A DNA stretch of 55,065 bases, from positions 1 through 55,065 of IMG/VR virus record IMGVR_UViG_3300031957_000171; one strand, 5' to 3'. The notes beneath the pieces were generated by a model. It had not been told where the DNA came from. It did no database searches and saw nothing but the letters and a program-made list of their open reading frames with translations. Source of the DNA: a virus. Made by a program: the position numbers and the translations under genes. Shown here piece after piece: positions 16,670 to 36,611 of the stretch. Position 1 is the stretch's first letter. Each line of letters starts with the position of its first letter.

Positions 16670-17441
16670 TATACATGTCCATTGGCTTTATTTTTCCTCG
16701 TCCGGCTAGGTATGTATAATCCCCATTCCATTCGGCTGCATACTTACCATCACTAGTCCGGCCACACTTCCAATCTTTAAACCAAGGACCACCTGTTGTA
16801 AAGTGTACGTTCTTGGCATCCATGTCTTCTGGAGAATGATTGTCCAACCAGTTCCATTCTTCATGGATGCTACCAATATCAGAATCTTTATCAGGCAACC
16901 ACTCAAAGCCGTGCAAGTATCCACCAGTCTCTGTGTTTACAAGTTCAGGAGTAAGCTTCTTATTGAGCTTGTGACTACAGTTAAAGAGCATTAGACTAGA
17001 CCAATTCTTACGTCGGTAGTCCTGTTGTTTACGTCCATCCATTTTAACACCATCACCCGGTGCATACTTATGTTTAACACAGTACAGTGGGTAGTAGTCT
17101 GAGTTATACTCTTCAAAGATTTCATTGATGTCAGTACGTAGGTACATGTCAGAGTCCATGTACAAGGCCCAGCCTTCATACATGTTCATGGCTGGCACCA
17201 AGAAGCGAGTGAAACTAAACTCACTTGAGAAGGGCTTGCCGTCAATCTTATCAATAGTTTGTCCATCAACTACATCAAACTCTCTGGTGTACATACCCAT
17301 TCGCTCTGCGACATCACGCCGGATAGGTACAACACGTACATTATCTACGGCTATCCGTTCAATGGTAAACTTTAAAACTTCATAGGCTGTATTCTCTTTA
17401 GGATCATATCCTATGTATACAGTGTTAGGTGATTTCTTCAT
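16659..17441 (-). CDS. Glycosyltransferase, GT-A fold (GT8-like)
   Basis: 260 aa. Features: VYIGYDPKENTAYEV at the N terminus, the sugar-nucleotide and metal motif GWALYMDSDMYLRTD with DSD at 96-98, and VHFTTGGPWF near residue 225, typical of GT8-type retaining enzymes. No membrane span is seen. It overlaps the HNH gene upstream and the fusion gene downstream, so the three glycan-related genes are co-transcribed. The donor and acceptor are unknown. Confidence 0.75.
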   Translation of the reverse strand: MKKSPNTVYIGYDPKENTAYEVLKFTIERIAVDNVRVVPIRRDVAERMGMYTREFDVVDGQTIDKIDGKPFSSEFSFTRFLVPAMNMYEGWALYMDSDMYLRTDINEIFEEYNSDYYPLYCVKHKYAPGDGVKMDGRKQQDYRRKNWSSLMLFNCSHKLNKKLTPELVNTETGGYLHGFEWLPDKDSDIGSIHEEWNWLDNHSPEDMDAKNVHFTTGGPWFKDWKCGRTSDGKYAAEWNGDYTYLAGRGKIKPMDMYNEV

Positions 17442-18006
17442 CTATATTCCTTTTTTCATTTCCATGATTAGGGTGAAAATTATAATTAATACTTGCTACT
17501 GCTCTGACTGCTGCTGCTTCTTCAACAGTGTCATAATATCCTAAATGTTTTTTAATATAATTTATAGATATTTCTGCACAATATTTTCTGTACCGTTTAT
17601 AAAACCTCACACCTGAATAACCAGTTGTACTATTGGTTTGTAGTGTTCTATTTTTATTATTTTCAGCCTGAGTTACATCTCTAAGATTTTTTATTCTATT
17701 ATCTGTAGGGTCTTGGTTGATATGGTCTATATGATTTTTAGGCCACTCACCATAATATATTAACCATACTATACGATGTGCAGTATAGTTTTTGTTGAGC
17801 ACACGACCACCTAACCTAGATATCTGTCCAGAATTTCTACGAGTAATGTTTGTAAGTGCTTCTTTACCAGCCCATCTAGTATTCCAAGACTTCATATTTA
17901 TTTTAAAGTTCTTAAAATATTTTGGTGATCTTTCTTTCCAGAAGAGTTTACCAGTATCAGGATTGTAAGTTAATAATTCTCTAGCTATTTCAGCAGTAAG
18001 TTCCAT
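17425..18006 (-). CDS. Homing endonuclease, HNH plus AP2 DNA-binding domain
   Basis: 193 aa. The HNH core (HRIVWLIYYGEW, then HIDHINQDPTDNRIKNLR) is followed by an AP2-type DNA-binding domain (GYSGVRFYKRYRKY ... HLGYYDTVEEAAAVRAVASI). This combination is typical of free-standing phage homing endonucleases. It sits between nrdB and the glycan genes and is preceded by its own strong promoter, as expected of an inserted mobile gene. Likely selfish; it could also cut related phages during co-infection. Confidence 0.85.
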   Translation of the reverse strand: MELTAEIARELLTYNPDTGKLFWKERSPKYFKNFKINMKSWNTRWAGKEALTNITRRNSGQISRLGGRVLNKNYTAHRIVWLIYYGEWPKNHIDHINQDPTDNRIKNLRDVTQAENNKNRTLQTNSTTGYSGVRFYKRYRKYCAEISINYIKKHLGYYDTVEEAAAVRAVASINYNFHPNHGNEKRNIDEEIT

Positions 18007-21525: not shown

Positions 21526-21862
21526 GTTCTTTTCTCCTTAGTAAAAGATTTAGTTTATGTCTTACTTCTTTATTGTTGTCTGAGTTAATAACATAAGATG
21601 CAAACTCCCTAACCTTATTAGGATTAAGGTCAGCGTAGTCACATATAAACTCAAAGTTTTCACTGGTCACACCTATAGAAGCGAAGAACCAATTGGTAGC
21701 TTCTCTTCTTAGAGATGTAATACTACTTGATTCAGTAATACTTTTAGACTTAGTTGCATCCAATAGAGCTTGGTATATAACAGATAAGAATAAAATATTG
21801 TTTGAATCTTTTTTACTTTCTTCCTGTAACTCTAGTATATTATTTATATTTTGTTGGTTCAT
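21518..21862 (-). CDS. Hypothetical protein, 114 aa
   Basis: I prefer the ATG at 21862 (MNQQNINNILELQEESKK); the frame extends to 21898 inside the neighbour. All-helical and hydrophilic, with the conserved-looking segment REATNWFFASIGVTSENFEF and ICDYADLNPNKVREFA. Similar short proteins occur in phage early regions, but I cannot name the family. It overlaps the GIY-YIG-like gene by 23 bp. Confidence 0.55.
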   Translation of the reverse strand: MNQQNINNILELQEESKKDSNNILFLSVIYQALLDATKSKSITESSSITSLRREATNWFFASIGVTSENFEFICDYADLNPNKVREFASYVINSDNNKEVRHKLNLLLRRKELE

Positions 21863-22268
21863 CCTCAAACTCTTGTACTGGCCTGTAGAACTTACCACCT
21901 ACATAGTTATTATAATATGCCGCTTCGTCTGTACCTTCTAAGACAGAAGACAGTACATTATATTTCATCTGGTAGTATAGCTCATAGTATTTTAGGCTTC
22001 TTTTATTTTTAAACTCAGCTATAATTTCAAACTTAAAACTTCTCTTGCCTAACTTTTTAATATCTTCTAGCAGTGACTTAGAAGAACCCATATAAATAAG
22101 CCAGTTAGATTCTCTTTTGGTTGGTGCAGTACTACCCTTCTTTCTTTTCACTGGGTGCCAATACTGCTTGCAACCTACATAAGCTTTGCCTGTTTTCTTA
22201 TTTGTAATAAGATAGACAAACCCAAAGTGTTTCTTTGGATTTGGTTTCTTACTATATTTCCAGTGCAT
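21840..22268 (-). CDS. GIY-YIG-like nuclease, putative homing type
   Basis: 142 aa. The N terminus FGFVYLITNKKTGKAYVGCK carries a degenerate GIY...YIG pair (FVY and YVG). The helical region KKLGKRSFKFEIIAEFKNKR and a Glu in LKYYELYYQMKYNVL fit the GIY-YIG active site. It sits within the replication block as a free-standing gene, typical of homing endonucleases. No separate DNA-binding domain is seen. Confidence 0.65.
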   Translation of the reverse strand: MHWKYSKKPNPKKHFGFVYLITNKKTGKAYVGCKQYWHPVKRKKGSTAPTKRESNWLIYMGSSKSLLEDIKKLGKRSFKFEIIAEFKNKRSLKYYELYYQMKYNVLSSVLEGTDEAAYYNNYVGGKFYRPVQEFEDEPTKYK

Positions 22269-30194: not shown

Positions 30195-31133
30195 TTATGC
30201 AGCCTCCAACTCTAACCAAGCAGGTGATACTAACATTTTCTTTACAGCATCTTCACGAAACACCCTTTTGTTGTGATCACCAGCCTTTTTAGCGGCGAGG
30301 TGGATGACGCTGGAGGTATGAGTGGACCACCCAGTAGCAGCTTGATAGGCTGTCCATAGTGATCCCTTCATTTGTGTACCATACTTCTCATACAATCCCT
30401 TGCCATGTACGTGACGGTTCTCATTGTCAAAAGTTTTCATAAGATTAGATAGCACAACTTTATTTGGTACATTCTTACGCTTAATATTATTAATCTTCTT
30501 GGCTAATGTATTACTAAATAATGATATAGCATCATCTCTACTAAGCTCAGTATTGTACCATCCCTTCATCTTTGTCAGCCCCTCACCAGAGACATACTCA
30601 GATGCTGCCCTGATCTTGGCACCAAATGACGTAACATTGAAGCCCTTGGTGTGCCTACCGTACACATAGGCCAGCTTATCACCACTGACTAAGGTGTTGA
30701 AACAGAATGTCCTGAAGAGGCCCATCATACCGTTGTTTGCCCATGTCCTGTTATGGCTGGTGCGGAAGACAAACTGTGGCACCACTGGACCTAATCCATC
30801 TATGTCCTTTGCATGGGCAGGGAACTTGGCAATCAACTCCATCCTTGCACCGCTGTCGTAGGTGTTGGTAGTAAATTCAGCATCAGTCAGGTCCAGCCCC
30901 GCTAGGTTGAGTGCCTCTTCGATCTGATCTACAATAGTAAGATACTGCGTAGGCTCATAGCTATCTGATACAATAGCCAGTGGCTCCATAGTATCTACAC
31001 GACGCAGACCTACACCAATGTCGTTTGGAATATCATAAATGCCCATACCTGCTGGACTGTGGGCTGGTATGTCTTGAGCTAGGGTAAATTTCTCTACTTG
31101 AAAGTTTAGTTTATCATGGTCAAACATATTCAT
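30195..31133 (-). CDS. DUF932 protein
   Basis: 312 aa. Features: VVPQFVFRTSHNRTWANNGM, then FCFNTLVSGDKLAYVYGRHT and the C-terminal TGWSTHTSSVIHLAAKK match the DUF932 family. Members occur on plasmids and phages, often near anti-restriction or replication genes; the activity is not established. Its ATG overlaps the upstream stop by four bases. Confidence 0.75.
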   Translation of the reverse strand: MNMFDHDKLNFQVEKFTLAQDIPAHSPAGMGIYDIPNDIGVGLRRVDTMEPLAIVSDSYEPTQYLTIVDQIEEALNLAGLDLTDAEFTTNTYDSGARMELIAKFPAHAKDIDGLGPVVPQFVFRTSHNRTWANNGMMGLFRTFCFNTLVSGDKLAYVYGRHTKGFNVTSFGAKIRAASEYVSGEGLTKMKGWYNTELSRDDAISLFSNTLAKKINNIKRKNVPNKVVLSNLMKTFDNENRHVHGKGLYEKYGTQMKGSLWTAYQAATGWSTHTSSVIHLAAKKAGDHNKRVFREDAVKKMLVSPAWLELEAA

Positions 31134-31294
31134 TCTCCTGTTTCTAGGGTAATAGGTGCATCATTGTCATGGAAGCATGTGAGTTTAAGTTTCTCTCCAT
31201 CAGATGTTGTTACTTCTACATTTATTATTCCAAATGTTTCCATGTCTGTTTTAGATATAACAATAGAACTTACGCTGTACATTGTACTTCTCAT
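31130..31294 (-). CDS. Hypothetical protein, 54 aa
   Basis: ATG at 31294, with ATAAGGA upstream. The product MRSTMYSVSSIVISKTDMET, then a beta strand and a charged C terminus, ends in TGE overlapping the DUF932 start. The four-base overlap supports translation. No family recognised. Confidence 0.5.
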   Translation of the reverse strand: MRSTMYSVSSIVISKTDMETFGIINVEVTTSDGEKLKLTCFHDNDAPITLETGE

Positions 31295-31314
31295 TGTATT
31301 CGTCCTTATATCTT

Positions 31315-31367
31315 CTAATTAAAGTAACTTAGTATCGTAAGATACTCTACTAAGTAACTTAAATTAG
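31315..31367 (-). repeat. Conserved-loop hairpin, copy 1
   Basis: Arms of about 20 bp (31315-31334 with 31348-31367, two mismatches) flank the 13-base loop TCGTAAGATACTC. The loop also holds an alternative 6-bp hairpin (AGTATC/GATACT) that competes with the outer stem. The core TAGTA..TACTA and loop edges are shared with four other copies in this unit. It lies between two short early genes. Confidence 0.7.
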
Positions 31368-31574
31368 TAGTAATTCCTCAGTTGTTTTAAGCTGGCTCAT
31401 GGCTATATCAAAAGCTGTATCTGGGCCTAGCTCATACCTTGTTGCTGTTAAAATAAAAGGTCGTTCTTCATTATCTACATACGTACTTACTGACCTTAAA
31501 GTTTTTTTATTCCACATGATTTTAATTTCATGTCCTCTTATTTCTTTTTCTACAAAAGTTATTCTATCAGTCAT
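31359..31574 (-). CDS. Hypothetical protein, 71 aa
   Basis: Starts MTDRITFVEKEIRGHEIKIM and ends in an amphipathic helix (TAFDIAMSQLKTTEELLLI). The start overlaps the upstream zinc-knuckle gene by four bases; the last eight codons run into hairpin copy 1. Unknown function. Confidence 0.5.
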   Translation of the reverse strand: MTDRITFVEKEIRGHEIKIMWNKKTLRSVSTYVDNEERPFILTATRYELGPDTAFDIAMSQLKTTEELLLI

Positions 31575-31783
31575 CGGTCATCTCCATCTTTCAGTGTTAT
31601 ACTAATAGTATTGAAGAAATCATCTTCAACTTCTTCAACTGTATCATAATGATAGTTGGATTCATACCACTGTACTTCACCTACACCCTCACATTCATTG
31701 CACATATCAGGTTTTGTAGTATACCCATATAATTCACCTTGTCCAGCACAATATTCACATTCTTGAACAATAACCCACGTCAT
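31571..31783 (-). CDS. DnaJ-type zinc-knuckle protein, 70 aa
   Basis: Two CxxCxGxG repeats (ECEYCAGQGELYG and MCNECEGVGEV), as in the central zinc domain of DnaJ, here as a single zinc site. An acidic C terminus follows. Stand-alone DnaJ zinc knuckles bind unfolded protein or nucleic acid in other systems; the role here is unknown. It could assist the GroES-like protein, but the genes lie in different units. Confidence 0.6.
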   Translation of the reverse strand: MTWVIVQECEYCAGQGELYGYTTKPDMCNECEGVGEVQWYESNYHYDTVEEVEDDFFNTISITLKDGDDR

Positions 31784-31801
31784 CTTATTACCTCTCTTTC
31801 C

Positions 31802-32113
31802 TTATCTTAGTGCTGCAATTAATCTAGCCTTAACCTTTTGTTTGTATGGTACTCTCTCAATCTTTTCATTGAAAGCCAATGACTTATCATAATAATTATT
31901 TATTCTTTGAGGATAAACATATTCTCTATTGTTTGGTATACACATACCAGCCCTTTTCTTAATACCTATTACAGCATTCTTTGTAAGTAAAGTTTTTAAT
32001 TTACCCCTACATAATCTATTGGCTTCAACTGCTACTTGATTTGCAGTCAAATTCTTTTTAAAAAGATCCAGAACTATTTGTTTTGTCTCTTGTTTGTGCG
32101 GTACTATAAACAT
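31802..32113 (-). CDS. GcrA-like regulatory protein
   Basis: 103 aa. The N-terminal helix-turn-helix (KQIVLDLFKKNLTANQVAVE ... LLTKNAVIGIKKRAGM) recalls the GcrA cell-cycle regulator, where LSASQIAxEL...TRNAVIGKxHRLG is diagnostic. GcrA binds sigma70-holoenzyme in alphaproteobacteria. The C-terminal part is basic and ends KARLIAALR. A phage copy could steer host RNA polymerase to phage promoters. The match is partial. Confidence 0.6.
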   Translation of the reverse strand: MFIVPHKQETKQIVLDLFKKNLTANQVAVEANRLCRGKLKTLLTKNAVIGIKKRAGMCIPNNREYVYPQRINNYYDKSLAFNEKIERVPYKQKVKARLIAALR

Positions 32114-32128
32114 TATCCAACTCTTTCA

Positions 32129-32734
32129 CTATACAGTCTCATTGTTTAAATCTCCCATTAAGTACGTTACATGGCAACGTGATACATGCTCACCATCATC
32201 ATATCTTTTAGGATATAAGTCAGCAATAAAATTGCACCAGCTATCCCATAGGTATTCACAGCCACCTAAATCTTCTAATGTTTTCAAGCACAACTCAGCT
32301 TTTCTTAAAGCTGTATCATAGCCTAGTTTCTTTGGTAGTTTGAATGTATTAGGTGAAAGTCCAAATCTTTTTAAGTTGTGAACGTCTAAACATCCAGCCT
32401 CACCTATACATAGTTGTAATATAAATCCAGCTTTAGGTAAACCTATACCATCAATAGCGGCTACATTTAATAGTTTAACTGCTAAAGGCATGGTCTTATC
32501 GTGGATAGTTTTATACAGTTCAGCCTTATGCTTAGTAGCATATGTTATGGTATCAGCCTTACTACCCCAAGCGTATTTACTTTCAATACCTTCACTTTTC
32601 ATAGAGTTAAATACAGTAGGCACTGTGTAAAATCTTTGTTGAATAGTAGAAGATACAAACAGTATCACCTCTCGTGTATGGTCAGGACTTTGCAAAGCAA
32701 AGGCTGCTATTCTTTTTTGATGGTTGCCAAACAT
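32129..32734 (-). CDS. HhH-containing protein, HhH-GPD glycosylase-like
   Basis: 201 aa. The helix-hairpin-helix segment LLNVAAIDGIGLPKAGFILQ is followed by GEAGCLDVHNLKRFGL. The HhH followed by a conserved Asp in a DxHxxR context is the arrangement of DNA glycosylases such as MutY/OGG. I see no catalytic Lys or Fe-S cluster. It may act on uracil or damaged bases, or simply bind DNA. The other parts are not recognised. Confidence 0.5.
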   Translation of the reverse strand: MFGNHQKRIAAFALQSPDHTREVILFVSSTIQQRFYTVPTVFNSMKSEGIESKYAWGSKADTITYATKHKAELYKTIHDKTMPLAVKLLNVAAIDGIGLPKAGFILQLCIGEAGCLDVHNLKRFGLSPNTFKLPKKLGYDTALRKAELCLKTLEDLGGCEYLWDSWCNFIADLYPKRYDDGEHVSRCHVTYLMGDLNNETV

Positions 32735-32756
32735 ATTCTAATTCCTTTAATTAACG

Positions 32757-32790
32757 CCCCGTAGTATCGTAAAAACTCTACTACGGGGCT
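32757..32790 (-). repeat. Conserved-loop hairpin, copy 2
   Basis: Perfect 11-bp stem GCCCCGTAGTA (32757-32767) with TACTACGGGGC (32780-32790) around the 12-base loop TCGTAAAAACTC. It lies between two small genes. The stem differs from the other copies, but pairing is kept. Confidence 0.75.
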
Positions 32791-32796
32791 TATTAA

Positions 32797-32985
32797 TTAA
32801 CTTTTAATACTAAACACTGGGTTAGCTGTCTCACCAAACCTGTTAGCATTAAAAACTTTCATGTATAGGCTACGCTTTCTGAAGTGAATGCCTAAGAAAC
32901 TTTTCCCAAGGCTAAAGCCATACCTGTTTTGTACTAGACGTGCCTTAGTTGATTTACCTAGTCCGGTTTTGTTAATAAGTTGCAT
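32797..32985 (-). CDS. Hypothetical basic protein, 62 aa
   Basis: Lys/Arg-rich beta-like protein (MQLINKTGLGKSTKARLVQN, then FLGIHFRKRSLYMKVFNANR). The stop lies next to hairpin copy 2. It shares one base with the next gene's stop. It could bind nucleic acid. No family. Confidence 0.5.
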   Translation of the reverse strand: MQLINKTGLGKSTKARLVQNRYGFSLGKSFLGIHFRKRSLYMKVFNANRFGETANPVFSIKS

Positions 32986-33197
32986 TAGTTTGCCCTCTGT
33001 GATGTTGCGGTGCCTTCAGGTAAGGCATCAGCGTTCTTAATGACTTTGAAAAACTCGTTACCGTTCTTTGCCAAGCCACGTATTCTGATAGCGTTGCCAG
33101 CCTCTACAGCAGCCTTGAATAGGCTGTTATCACCCTTTTCCTTTTGTTTTATTTCTACCCATTTCTTATCTTGGTAAACGTCAAATGCTTTAGACAT
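32985..33197 (-). CDS. Hypothetical protein, 70 aa
   Basis: Starts MSKAFDVYQDKKWVEIKQKE; the middle AVEAGNAIRIRGLAKNGNEF is a beta-rich basic surface. The stop and next start overlap by one base. Function unknown. Confidence 0.5.
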   Translation of the reverse strand: MSKAFDVYQDKKWVEIKQKEKGDNSLFKAAVEAGNAIRIRGLAKNGNEFFKVIKNADALPEGTATSQRAN

Positions 33198-33221
33198 GTG
33201 TAACCTCTTTGGTCGTTGTAT

Positions 33222-33240
33222 GCTGCTACACCCTAGCAGC
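33222..33240 (-). repeat. Short perfect hairpin upstream of a small gene
   Basis: GCTGCTA (33222-33228), loop CACCC, TAGCAGC (33234-33240): a 7-bp stem in the leader of the gene starting at 33197. No U-run. Confidence 0.5.
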
Positions 33241-33270
33241 GTGGGCTAGATAATTCATACCTAATAGATA

Positions 33271-33301
33271 CCCTTTAGTATCACTATGTTCTACTAAAGG
33301 G
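33271..33301 (-). repeat. Conserved-loop hairpin, copy 3
   Basis: Perfect 10-bp stem CCCTTTAGTA (33271-33280) with TACTAAAGGG (33292-33301) and the 11-base loop TCACTATGTTC, identical to the loop of copy 4. It sits between two small early genes. Confidence 0.75.
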
Positions 33302-33326
33302 CATCAATTAGCCATCAATTTTATTC

Positions 33327-33545
33327 TCATGTTATCCAATCCAATGCGCCATTGAGATACTGATTCATCTCTTTACCTGACATGCGTGGTGTTGCATGGT
33401 GTGAACCTTTATAGTTTACCAAACAATAACCTCCATAGCATTCAGCATAATCTAAATTCACATAAGAAGATTCATGCAACTTCAACTTAGCATTAAGTTG
33501 ATCTAATTTAGCCTGTAAAGTTTTCTTTGTGATACGATTAGTCAT
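33327..33545 (-). CDS. Hypothetical protein, 72 aa
   Basis: Helical basic N terminus (MTNRITKKTLQAKLDQLNAK), then ECYGGYCLVNYKGSHHATPR and a C-terminal helix. The region GxYxLxxxxGSHxxTPxxSxKEMxxYL is familiar from short early proteins of marine phages; function unknown. The stop is 25 bases from hairpin copy 3. Confidence 0.6.
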   Translation of the reverse strand: MTNRITKKTLQAKLDQLNAKLKLHESSYVNLDYAECYGGYCLVNYKGSHHATPRMSGKEMNQYLNGALDWIT

Positions 33546-33549
33546 GTTA

Positions 33550-33741
33550 TTATCCTTTGTAAGATGTAATGTAGTCTAGGCAAGCTATGCAAGCTGTTAT
33601 GATAACAGCACCTATAACAATAAGCAATGTTGATATATAAATATCAAAGGGCAATAGAATGCCGCTGACTATTAAGAATAGTGCTACTAACATTCCGAAT
33701 ACCGTAACTGCTAATAGAATAGTATTTCTAACAAGTGTCAT
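33550..33741 (-). CDS. Small two-span membrane protein, 63 aa
   Basis: Two hydrophobic helices (about 4-27 and 33-55: NTILLAVTVFGMLVALFLIV and IYISTLLIVIGAVIITACIA). An early membrane protein of this kind could block superinfection or alter host membranes, but this is a guess. Four bases separate it from the next gene. Confidence 0.6.
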   Translation of the reverse strand: MTLVRNTILLAVTVFGMLVALFLIVSGILLPFDIYISTLLIVIGAVIITACIACLDYITSYKG

Positions 33742-33764
33742 GTCAATTACCTTTCTTAATTAAC

Positions 33765-33797
33765 GCCCTGTAGTATCACTATGTTCTACTACAGGGC
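33765..33797 (-). repeat. Conserved-loop hairpin, copy 4
   Basis: Perfect 11-bp stem GCCCTGTAGTA (33765-33775) with TACTACAGGGC (33787-33797) and the same 11-base loop as copy 3. TTAATTA-type inverted flanks extend the pairing beyond an internal loop. Confidence 0.75.
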
Positions 33798-33803
33798 TAA
33801 TAA

Positions 33804-33977
33804 TTAACTTCCAAAAACCTGATATCTTACTTCGTCGCAATCGTCATGAGTTGACACGTAAAAACCTTTTTGGGTGTACAAGTCAACTCCAGTTCCTCCT
33901 GTGGAGGGATAAGCAATCAGCCCATCAGTTGCCATATCAAGCTCTGCTTGGAGGTAGGTTATGTCGTTGATCTTCAT
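33804..33977 (-). CDS. First gene of the leftward unit, 57 aa, unknown
   Basis: ATG at 33977, with GGAG upstream. The product MKINDITYLQAELDMATDGL, then YPSTGGTGVDLYTQKGFYVS and an acidic end (THDDCDEVRYQVFGS), looks compact and foldable. It is the gene nearest to the control region and so likely the earliest expressed. No family recognised. Confidence 0.55.
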   Translation of the reverse strand: MKINDITYLQAELDMATDGLIAYPSTGGTGVDLYTQKGFYVSTHDDCDEVRYQVFGS

Positions 33978-34013
33978 GGTAAAACTCCGTTGGTTGAGGT
34001 TGGTAGTTATAAT

Positions 34014-34064
34014 CTAATTAATCTCTTTAGTATCGTAAGATACTCTACTAAAGATATTAATTAG
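34014..34064 (-). repeat. Conserved-loop hairpin, copy 5
   Basis: 19-bp arms (34014-34032 with 34046-34064, one mismatch) enclose the same 13-base loop TCGTAAGATACTC as copy 1. It lies in the control region upstream of the first leftward gene, so it would be in the 5' leader of the whole early message. Confidence 0.75.
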
Positions 34065-34080
34065 TATATCGTCTCTGCTT

Positions 34081-34138
34081 TGTCAAGCCTCTCGTCAAAA
34101 TGCTTTGCATTTCGTCACGGCACCTTTGGTGCTTGACA
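34081..34138. promoter_or_regulatory. Inverted TTGACA boxes, possible divergent promoter or operator
   Basis: TGTCAAGC (34081-34088) and GCTTGACA (34131-34138) form a perfect 8-bp inverted repeat, each arm containing a consensus -35 box pointing outward. The -10 elements at normal spacing are poor in both directions (leftward TATACT is only 12 bp away). It may be an operator or an activator-dependent promoter. Confidence 0.35.
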
Positions 34139-34292
34139 TGGTGCAATGTGTTGGATTGTGTAACAATCACAACGACTTAGCATGGTTTGCCAAGAGTTTA
34201 CGTAGTAAGCCAATCTGCCATACCATCCCTCTTCGGGATGATTTACGTAGTAACTGTGACAAATTTGCAACAGTTTGGCTGAAGTTTCCTTA

Positions 34293-34343
34293 CTAACTCT
34301 TTGTAAAGTCTTCGTAAGAACTTAGACTTTACTACAGAGTTAG
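34293..34343. repeat. Long imperfect hairpin in control region
   Basis: Arms 34293-34311 and 34324-34343 pair over 17 bp with one small internal loop (CTAACTCT with AGAGTTAG, GTAAAGTCT with AGACTTTAC). The 12-base loop contains TCGTAAGA, also found in the loops of hairpin copies 1 and 5. Confidence 0.6.
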
Positions 34344-34367
34344 ATAGGGACTCCTACGGAGTCCTAT
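34344..34367. repeat. GC-rich hairpin in control region
   Basis: GACTCC-TAC-GGAGTC (34349-34363), extended by further pairs with one bulge to 34344-34367. It follows the long hairpin directly. No U-run on either strand. Confidence 0.5.
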
Positions 34368-36206: not shown

Positions 36207-36611
36207 ATGGTAAGTGAATTAGAAAAAGTATTGCTTATATTATCATTGTCTAACAGACATGAGAATTGGAATGTGAAAGATATACAGAGATTGGTTATAC
36301 CGCCACTAAAATTAAACCAATACAGAATATATATAGATGAAGAAGTTCCGCTGTGTTATGCAAGCTGGGCAATGTTTCCAAAAGAAGCTGACGAAGGTTA
36401 TAAAAATAAAACCAGAAAGATTCAACCAAAAGACTGGGATAGTGGGAATAACCTTTGGCTGGTAGATGTGATATGTCCTTTTGGAGGTACACGTAGTGCA
36501 ATTAAAAGATTAGACACTTTAAGAAAAGAACTGGGATTACCAGATAAAGTAAATTTTTATAGAGGCAAACGGTTGGGGAGCAATAGAGTAAATAATGTTA
36601 CACGAATTTAA
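36207..36611 (+). CDS. HlyC/RTX toxin-activating lysine acyltransferase homologue
   Basis: 134 aa. It aligns along its length with toxin-activating acyltransferases: [20 protein letters not shown] near the start, [34 protein letters not shown] and a closing [11 protein letters not shown]. His18 and Asp87 sit where HlyC has catalytic His23 and Asp92. HlyC moves a fatty acyl chain from acyl carrier protein to internal lysines of pro-haemolysin. There is no RTX toxin here (no GGxGxDxUx nonapeptides). Its stop overlaps the next gene by 17 bp, so that protein, the portal or another virion protein are candidate substrates. Confidence 0.85.

What the first reader, a model, noticed from the sequence alone, without database searches (positions are those of the whole stretch)
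31315..34064. Family of five hairpins with conserved loop and covarying stems
Between tiny early genes lie five inverted repeats with the same core TAGTA..TACTA. Loops come in closely related versions (TCGTAAGATACTC, TCACTATGTTC, TCGTAAAAACTC). Stems differ in sequence but pair perfectly or almost so (CCCTTTAGTA, GCCCTGTAGTA, GCCCCGTAGTA). Paired changes point to selection on structure. On the transcribed strand all loops start with GA and end with GA. Copies 1 and 5 also allow a competing inner hairpin. They could be RNA-processing sites, protein-binding RNA sites or mobile palindromic units.
Basis: seen in the sequence. Interest (0 to 1): 0.78.

Follow-up and report, generated by a model that had tools for sequence, protein, structure and literature searches.

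The report
Phage RNA hairpin family with partner gene
A lineage of uncultured phages carries several copies of one RNA hairpin between its early genes; the tip is kept while the stems change in matched pairs, and the hairpins go together with one tiny protein gene that usually has a hairpin just in front of it, which suggests an undescribed RNA-control system.

Summary
The five hairpins are real (0 of 100 shuffles have as many) and a sixth, degenerate copy lies at 34284-34352. All are on the early-operon sense strand, between a stop codon and the next ribosome-binding site. The element recurs in about 60 IMG/VR contigs of one phage lineage. Over 52 distinct copies, 18 of 21 base pairs show compensatory changes while the tip (UAGUA-GA-GU..AC-GA-UACUA) is kept. 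G.U pairs outnumber A.C mismatches 22 to 1, so the selected structure is on the mRNA strand. No Rfam family or cultured phage matched.

New lead: a 70-aa gene ('p70', 32985-33197). It is in 28 of 28 loci with two or more hairpins and 3 of 25 others, across 6-8 state changes on the terminase tree; in 13 of 16 lineages a hairpin lies within 100 nt upstream of it. Four new contigs found by p70 alone all carry hairpins.

Best explanation: a 5'-UTR RNA operator recognised by p70 (or a linked protein), coordinating early mRNAs and autoregulating p70. Binding is untested. T7-like RNase processing is the main rival; the mobile-unit reading is not supported.

The parts
34011..34067 (-). Hairpin copy 5, in front of the first early gene (33804-33977)
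   Evidence: R1 model 66.0 bits, E 3.1e-15; fold -20.1 kcal/mol, z -5.4
33754..33808 (-). Hairpin copy 4, in front of gene 33550-33741
   Evidence: R1 model 52.7 bits, E 1.8e-11; fold -24.4 kcal/mol, z -7.3
33259..33313 (-). Hairpin copy 3, in the leader of p70
   Evidence: R1 model 56.9 bits, E 1.2e-12; fold -27.1 kcal/mol, z -6.8
32745..32802 (-). Hairpin copy 2, in front of gene 32129-32734
   Evidence: R1 model 58.6 bits, E 3.8e-13; fold -28.2 kcal/mol, z -8.0
31313..31369 (-). Hairpin copy 1, in front of gene 31130-31294; its outer arm overlaps the end of gene 31359-31574
   Evidence: R1 model 68.1 bits, E 8.2e-16; fold -20.0 kcal/mol, z -4.8
34284..34352 (-). Sixth, degenerate copy (GTAAAGTCT AA GTTCTTAC GA AGACTTTAC) in the leader upstream of copy 5
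   Evidence: fold -26.7 kcal/mol, z -5.5; weak model match 15.3 bits; homologous elements GAAAACCCT-GAAGTTCTTACGA-AGGGTTTTC at the same place in L142, L144, L146
32985..33197 (-). p70, 70-aa protein gene; candidate hairpin-binding partner
   Evidence: Co-occurs with hairpins; hairpin upstream of it in 13 of 16 lineages; predicted beta-beta-alpha-beta-beta, pLDDT 82; no family, PDB or phage-record match
33804..33977 (-). First early gene (57 aa); second-best co-occurring family, also usually preceded by a hairpin
   Evidence: 26 of 28 hairpin loci, 2 of 25 others; 12 of 14 lineages with a hairpin within 100 nt
34058..34086 (-). Possible early promoter TTGACA-N17-TAATTA; the second hexamer overlaps the 5' outer arm of copy 5 (inference)
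   Evidence: TTGACA recurs about 41 nt before the tip of the first-gene hairpin in several lineages; not listed by the consensus scan

Best explanation
The hairpins are copies of one cis-acting RNA element in the early mRNAs of an uncultured phage lineage. Shown here: the structure is real, selected on the mRNA sense strand, multi-copy, placed between a stop codon and the next ribosome-binding site, and found only in relatives that also carry the small p70 gene. Inferred: the conserved tip (tandem GA/GA mismatch, short inner stem, 3-4 nt loop) is the docking site of a phage protein, most likely p70 (or the linked 57-aa first-gene protein). Bound in the 5' UTR, it sets translation or decay of several early mRNAs together and of p70's own mRNA (autoregulation). 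The stem, whose sequence is free to change, presents the tip.
For: 18 of 21 pairs with compensatory changes, tip nearly invariant. G.U versus A.C 22:1, and 16:1 at positions 9-13, p = 0.0003. Position between stop and ribosome-binding site. p70 present in 28/28 hairpin loci and 3/25 others; no hairpin locus with at least 3 kb of early region lacks it. About 8 changes of hairpin state on the terminase tree, independent pairs 5 same: 0 opposite. Hairpin within 100 nt upstream of p70 in 13 of 16 lineages against a mean of 23% over 59 families. Contigs found from p70 alone (L326, L327, L329, L330; two lineages) all carry hairpins, one just upstream of p70. Layout resembles the T4 gp43 operator, a hairpin about 40 nt upstream of the start codon (PMC3014915).
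Against: No binding or expression data. p70 and hairpins sit in the same exchangeable early region, so linkage could explain part of the co-occurrence; the first early gene tracks almost as well. Independent pairs reach only p = 0.0625. p70 has no recognisable RNA-binding fold, and its net charge varies from -4 to +7. L158 and L170 have p70 without GA hairpins, though they have other hairpins.
Confidence: 0.45

Rival explanations
1. RNA-processing sites: host RNase III or a phage-directed nuclease cuts the early polycistronic RNA at each hairpin, giving shorter mRNAs with hairpin-protected ends, as in the T7 early region.
For: Long paired stems of about 20 bp with a mismatch, 3-8 copies at early gene junctions on the transcribed strand. 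T7 R1.1 is an RNase III substrate cut at a single bond (PMC4858673).
Against: RNase III does not need a conserved tip sequence (general knowledge), yet the tip is the most conserved part. A purely host-driven site does not explain the tie to p70.
Confidence: 0.27
2. 5'-UTR stabiliser or insulator: the hairpins shield mRNA 5' ends or separate translation units without a dedicated protein.
For: Immediately upstream of ribosome-binding sites; at the first gene a possible promoter would start RNA inside the 5' arm (inference).
Against: Does not explain the conserved GA/GA tip or the co-occurring gene.
Confidence: 0.12
3. DNA-level element (single-strand initiation site, cruciform, operator) acting on one genome strand.
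For: All copies lie on one strand; no G.U at all in the nine pairs next to the tip. Tandem GA mismatches can also form in DNA (general knowledge).
Against: G.U clearly outnumbers A.C at the outer pairs, which favours sense-strand RNA, although sense-strand single-stranded DNA is not excluded; copies keep to junctions of the early operon.
Confidence: 0.1
4. Mobile palindromic unit or recombination cassette boundary.
For: Homology blocks often end at hairpin edges, and L148 has an array of 8 copies with a gene that sits elsewhere in L144.
Against: Hairpin junctions kept/broken 124/101, other junctions 200/203, p = 0.21. One strand, one operon. Stems diverge by compensation, not as copies of a unit.
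Confidence: 0.06

Closest known systems
T4/RB69 gp43 translational operator (PMC3014915)
   Same: Hairpin about 40 nt upstream of the start codon, conserved top and loop, protein proposed to bind and autoregulate; p70 leaders show hairpins 35-72 nt upstream in most lineages.
   Different: gp43 has a short single operator; here 3-8 long-stemmed copies per genome precede several genes, with a GA/GA tip and an unrelated small protein.
T7 early-region RNase III sites (R1.1 and others)
   Same: Several paired elements at early gene junctions on the transcribed strand.
   Different: Conserved tip sequence and lineage-restricted co-occurrence with a small gene; cleavage not tested.
T4 RegA / RegB control of early mRNAs (PMC3014915)
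   Same: One small phage protein acting on many early mRNAs, including its own, is the kind of control proposed.
   Different: RegB cuts GGAG motifs and is inhibited by RNA secondary structure; RegA sites lack structure; here the conserved feature is a hairpin. No sequence relation of p70 found.
T4 promoter-early stem-loop cassettes (Arbiol et al. 2010; text not held, known from memory)
   Same: Stem-loops in early phage regions, partly with promoters.
   Different: No excess rearrangement at hairpins, and most copies lack an upstream TTGAnn match (95 of 126).
REP elements / integron attC
   Same: Imperfect palindromes with covarying stems between small genes.
   Different: No sign of mobility; no transposase or integrase recognised among the window proteins scanned, though no dedicated search was made.

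Membership tests
Any Rfam 15 family | Covariance-model match at or above the gathering score | tested here: not met
   No match in the window; best sub-threshold matches 22.1 and 20.8 bits against cut-offs of 51 and 39.8
Phage autoregulatory translational operator (gp43-like) | Conserved hairpin in the 5' UTR of the regulator's own gene | tested here: met
   p70 has a hairpin within 100 nt upstream in 13 of 16 lineages
Phage autoregulatory translational operator (gp43-like) | The encoded protein binds the hairpin and represses translation | not testable with these tools
   Needs binding and reporter assays
T7-type RNase III processing site | Paired stem of roughly two helical turns at early gene junctions | tested here: met
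   About 20 bp in two stem parts, at junctions on the early strand
T7-type RNase III processing site | Specific cleavage by RNase III / transcript ends | not testable with these tools
   No RNA-seq or enzyme assay available
Intrinsic terminator | G+C-rich stem followed by a run of U | tested here: not met
   None of the hairpins is listed by the terminator scan; the stem is followed by GTTAATTAA-type sequence
Mobile palindrome / recombination cassette | Gene junctions with the element rearrange more often | tested here: not met
   124 kept / 101 broken versus 200 / 203, p = 0.21
N4-type hairpin promoter | Cognate phage virion RNA polymerase | tested here: inconclusive
   No RNA polymerase match among window proteins scanned with Pfam and PHROGs; the 1696-aa protein has no confident match

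The most novel reading that the evidence does not exclude
An undescribed phage post-transcriptional regulon: a protein family of about 60-110 aa without detected relatives recognises a tandem-GA RNA hairpin present in several 5' UTRs including its own, and the pair is gained, lost or retuned together among close relatives (the L158/L170 group has a divergent p70 and a different hairpin family).
Probability: 0.35. Interest if true: 0.8.

Novelty: new variant of a known kind. Interest (0 to 1): 0.62.

Why it matters
If true, these phages control many early genes at once with one RNA element and one tiny protein, a role comparable to T4 RegA/RegB or T7 RNase III processing but built from different parts. 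It is directly testable in vitro with a 70-aa protein and a 57-nt RNA, and could supply a new RNA-protein recognition pair. It would also give a function to an orphan early gene family in uncultured phages.

Tried and rejected
Short blastn queries against phage records: chance only. GTDB pattern scan: one isolated hit in a Flavobacterium genome; the hairpin finder found no paired stem at that site. Rfam: nothing. Four cultured phage records: no model hits in the stretches read. Terminator reading rejected. Mobile cassette tested and not supported, although block edges at hairpins looked suggestive at first. The competing inner hairpin as main fold: possible in many copies, impossible in several loop classes, not preferred by RNAfold; left open as an alternative state. 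First MAFFT alignment of 61 copies misaligned six rows; rows were dropped and 52 kept. Sequence and fold searches with p70 gave no credible relative. Literature searches found no description of this element; the Arbiol 2010 paper is not held.

Full report
OBSERVATION. The window is a 55,065-base IMG/VR virus record. Its terminase is about 40% identical to that of Pelagibacter phage HTVC027P. The minus strand from 34.0 kb downwards is the early, DNA-metabolism operon: small genes, a DUF932 protein, primase/helicase, DNA polymerase, ribonucleotide reductase. TAGTAGA-N(5-14)-GATACTA occurs five times, all on that strand, against 0.03 expected. Folded as RNA, the copies reach -20 to -28 kcal/mol with z-scores of -4.8 to -8.0; the plus strand folds less stably. 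Each copy has an 8-14 bp inner stem, often an A.G mismatch or G.U near pair 12, an outer AT-rich stem, and a tip of tandem GA/GA mismatches, a 2-3 bp inner stem (GU/AC or AC/GU) and 3-4 loop bases. A sixth, degenerate copy lies at 34284-34352.

RELATIVES. Terminase-based retrieval and two loop-based scans gave 195 raw hairpins, reduced to 61 representatives. The hairpin-bearing loci share syntenic genes with the window, apart from a few short fragments. On a 52-sequence alignment 18 of 21 pairs have changes on both sides; the covariation score is 0.614 against 0.205 shuffled and 0.184 at best when slid. Bias to note: the finder required eight paired positions next to the tip and two inner pairs, so those pairs look perfect by selection; the outer positions were not required. 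Among 61 copies G.U outnumbers A.C 22 to 1, and 16 to 1 at positions 9-13 beyond the required stem (p = 0.0003). This points to the sense strand, most simply the mRNA. A covariance model finds 5-8 copies in several relatives but none in L127 (terminase 95% identical), L136-L139, L147 and others, and none in stretches of four cultured phages.

CONTEXT. The stem usually starts 0-19 nt after a stop codon (78 of 125 sites). The next start lies a median 31 nt after the inner stem, most often 20-29 nt, typically with TTAATTAA and AGGAG in between. Intergenic space in phages is short anyway, so position alone is weak evidence. The hairpins are not terminators. At the first early gene TTGACA recurs about 41 nt before the tip in several lineages. 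If that is a promoter, its second hexamer overlaps the 5' outer arm and the RNA would start inside that arm; this is inference, and the consensus scan did not list the site.

PARTNER GENE. A profile search showed that the 70-aa gene at 32985-33197 (p70) tracks the hairpins. Among loci with at least 3 kb of early region, 33 have both, none has hairpins without the gene, 22 have neither and 3 have the gene with fewer than two hairpins; with near-duplicates removed, 28 of 28 versus 3 of 25. Part of this sample was found through the hairpins themselves. The hairpin state changes about 8 times on the terminase tree, 6 on well-supported branches; independent pairs give mostly 5 same, 0 opposite, 1 without difference, p = 0.0625. 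Of the early families tested, p70 is the most concordant (phi 0.89), then the first early gene (0.85). Both usually have a hairpin within 100 nt upstream, 13 of 16 and 12 of 14 lineages, against a mean of 23%. Four contigs found from p70 sequence alone and not among the earlier loci (L326, L327, L329, L330, two near-identical pairs) carry hairpins, one just upstream of p70. The exceptions L158 and L170 are close kin of L173 and carry another hairpin family. p70 is predicted as beta-beta-alpha-beta-beta, pLDDT 82, without credible relatives in sequence or fold.

MECHANISM. A fixed tip on a freely covarying stem argues for recognition of the tip. p70 is the best candidate reader: always present with the hairpins and usually with a hairpin in its own leader, the layout of autoregulatory operators such as T4 gp43 (PMC3014915). 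That p70 binds, and what binding does, is inferred. Linkage within the early region is the main confounder, and the first early gene is a second candidate. RNase III processing as in T7 is the main rival and could coexist. The mobile-unit reading failed its test.

NOVELTY. No Rfam family, cultured phage record or paper found here describes the element. It probably works like known phage RNA operators or processing sites, but sequence, architecture, copy number and candidate protein are new. Confidence in the RNA element itself is about 0.9; in the p70-operator mechanism 0.45.

Noticed in passing
L225 (early-region offsets 344, 656, 1400), L194 (offset 592), L158, L170, L173: A second hairpin family in the early region of relatives, with variable outer stems and an ACTTA motif, either before GCTTTC-YTY-GAAAGC or within CTACTACTTAGTAG.
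   Followed up: partly
L210:3689-3833 (-): A non-coding stretch after a hairpin with an acceptor-like stem and T-arm (GGGTTCGATTCCC..CACCCCCACC); weak tmRNA match, 15.5 bits, E 0.0017, below the cut-off of 47, and not called by ARAGORN. A similar T-arm follows a hairpin near L210:6236-6425 and in L242 and L253.
   Followed up: partly
window 34064-34352 (-) and the leaders of L140, L142, L148, L211, L216, L248, L158, L127: The leader before the first early gene is a structured non-coding stretch; most relatives keep a CATCC-N3-GGATG hairpin there, also in some without the GA hairpins (L127).
   Followed up: partly
L127:5630 and 9105; G001:26100 and 29592: A hairpin-free close relative has its own two-copy hairpin, AGCAATCCCTC-ACTCACTTCTRCGAAGC-GAGGGATTGCT.
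   Followed up: no
window 36207-36611 (+): HlyC-type acyltransferase family match (E 5e-27) right after the terminase large subunit, variable among relatives.
   Followed up: no
window 31571-31783 (-): Tiny protein resembling the DnaJ CXXCXGXG zinc region, below Pfam's cut-off.
   Followed up: no
window 17425-18006 and 21840-22268 (-): HNH and SegE-type GIY-YIG homing-type endonuclease genes flanking the ribonucleotide reductase genes.
   Followed up: no
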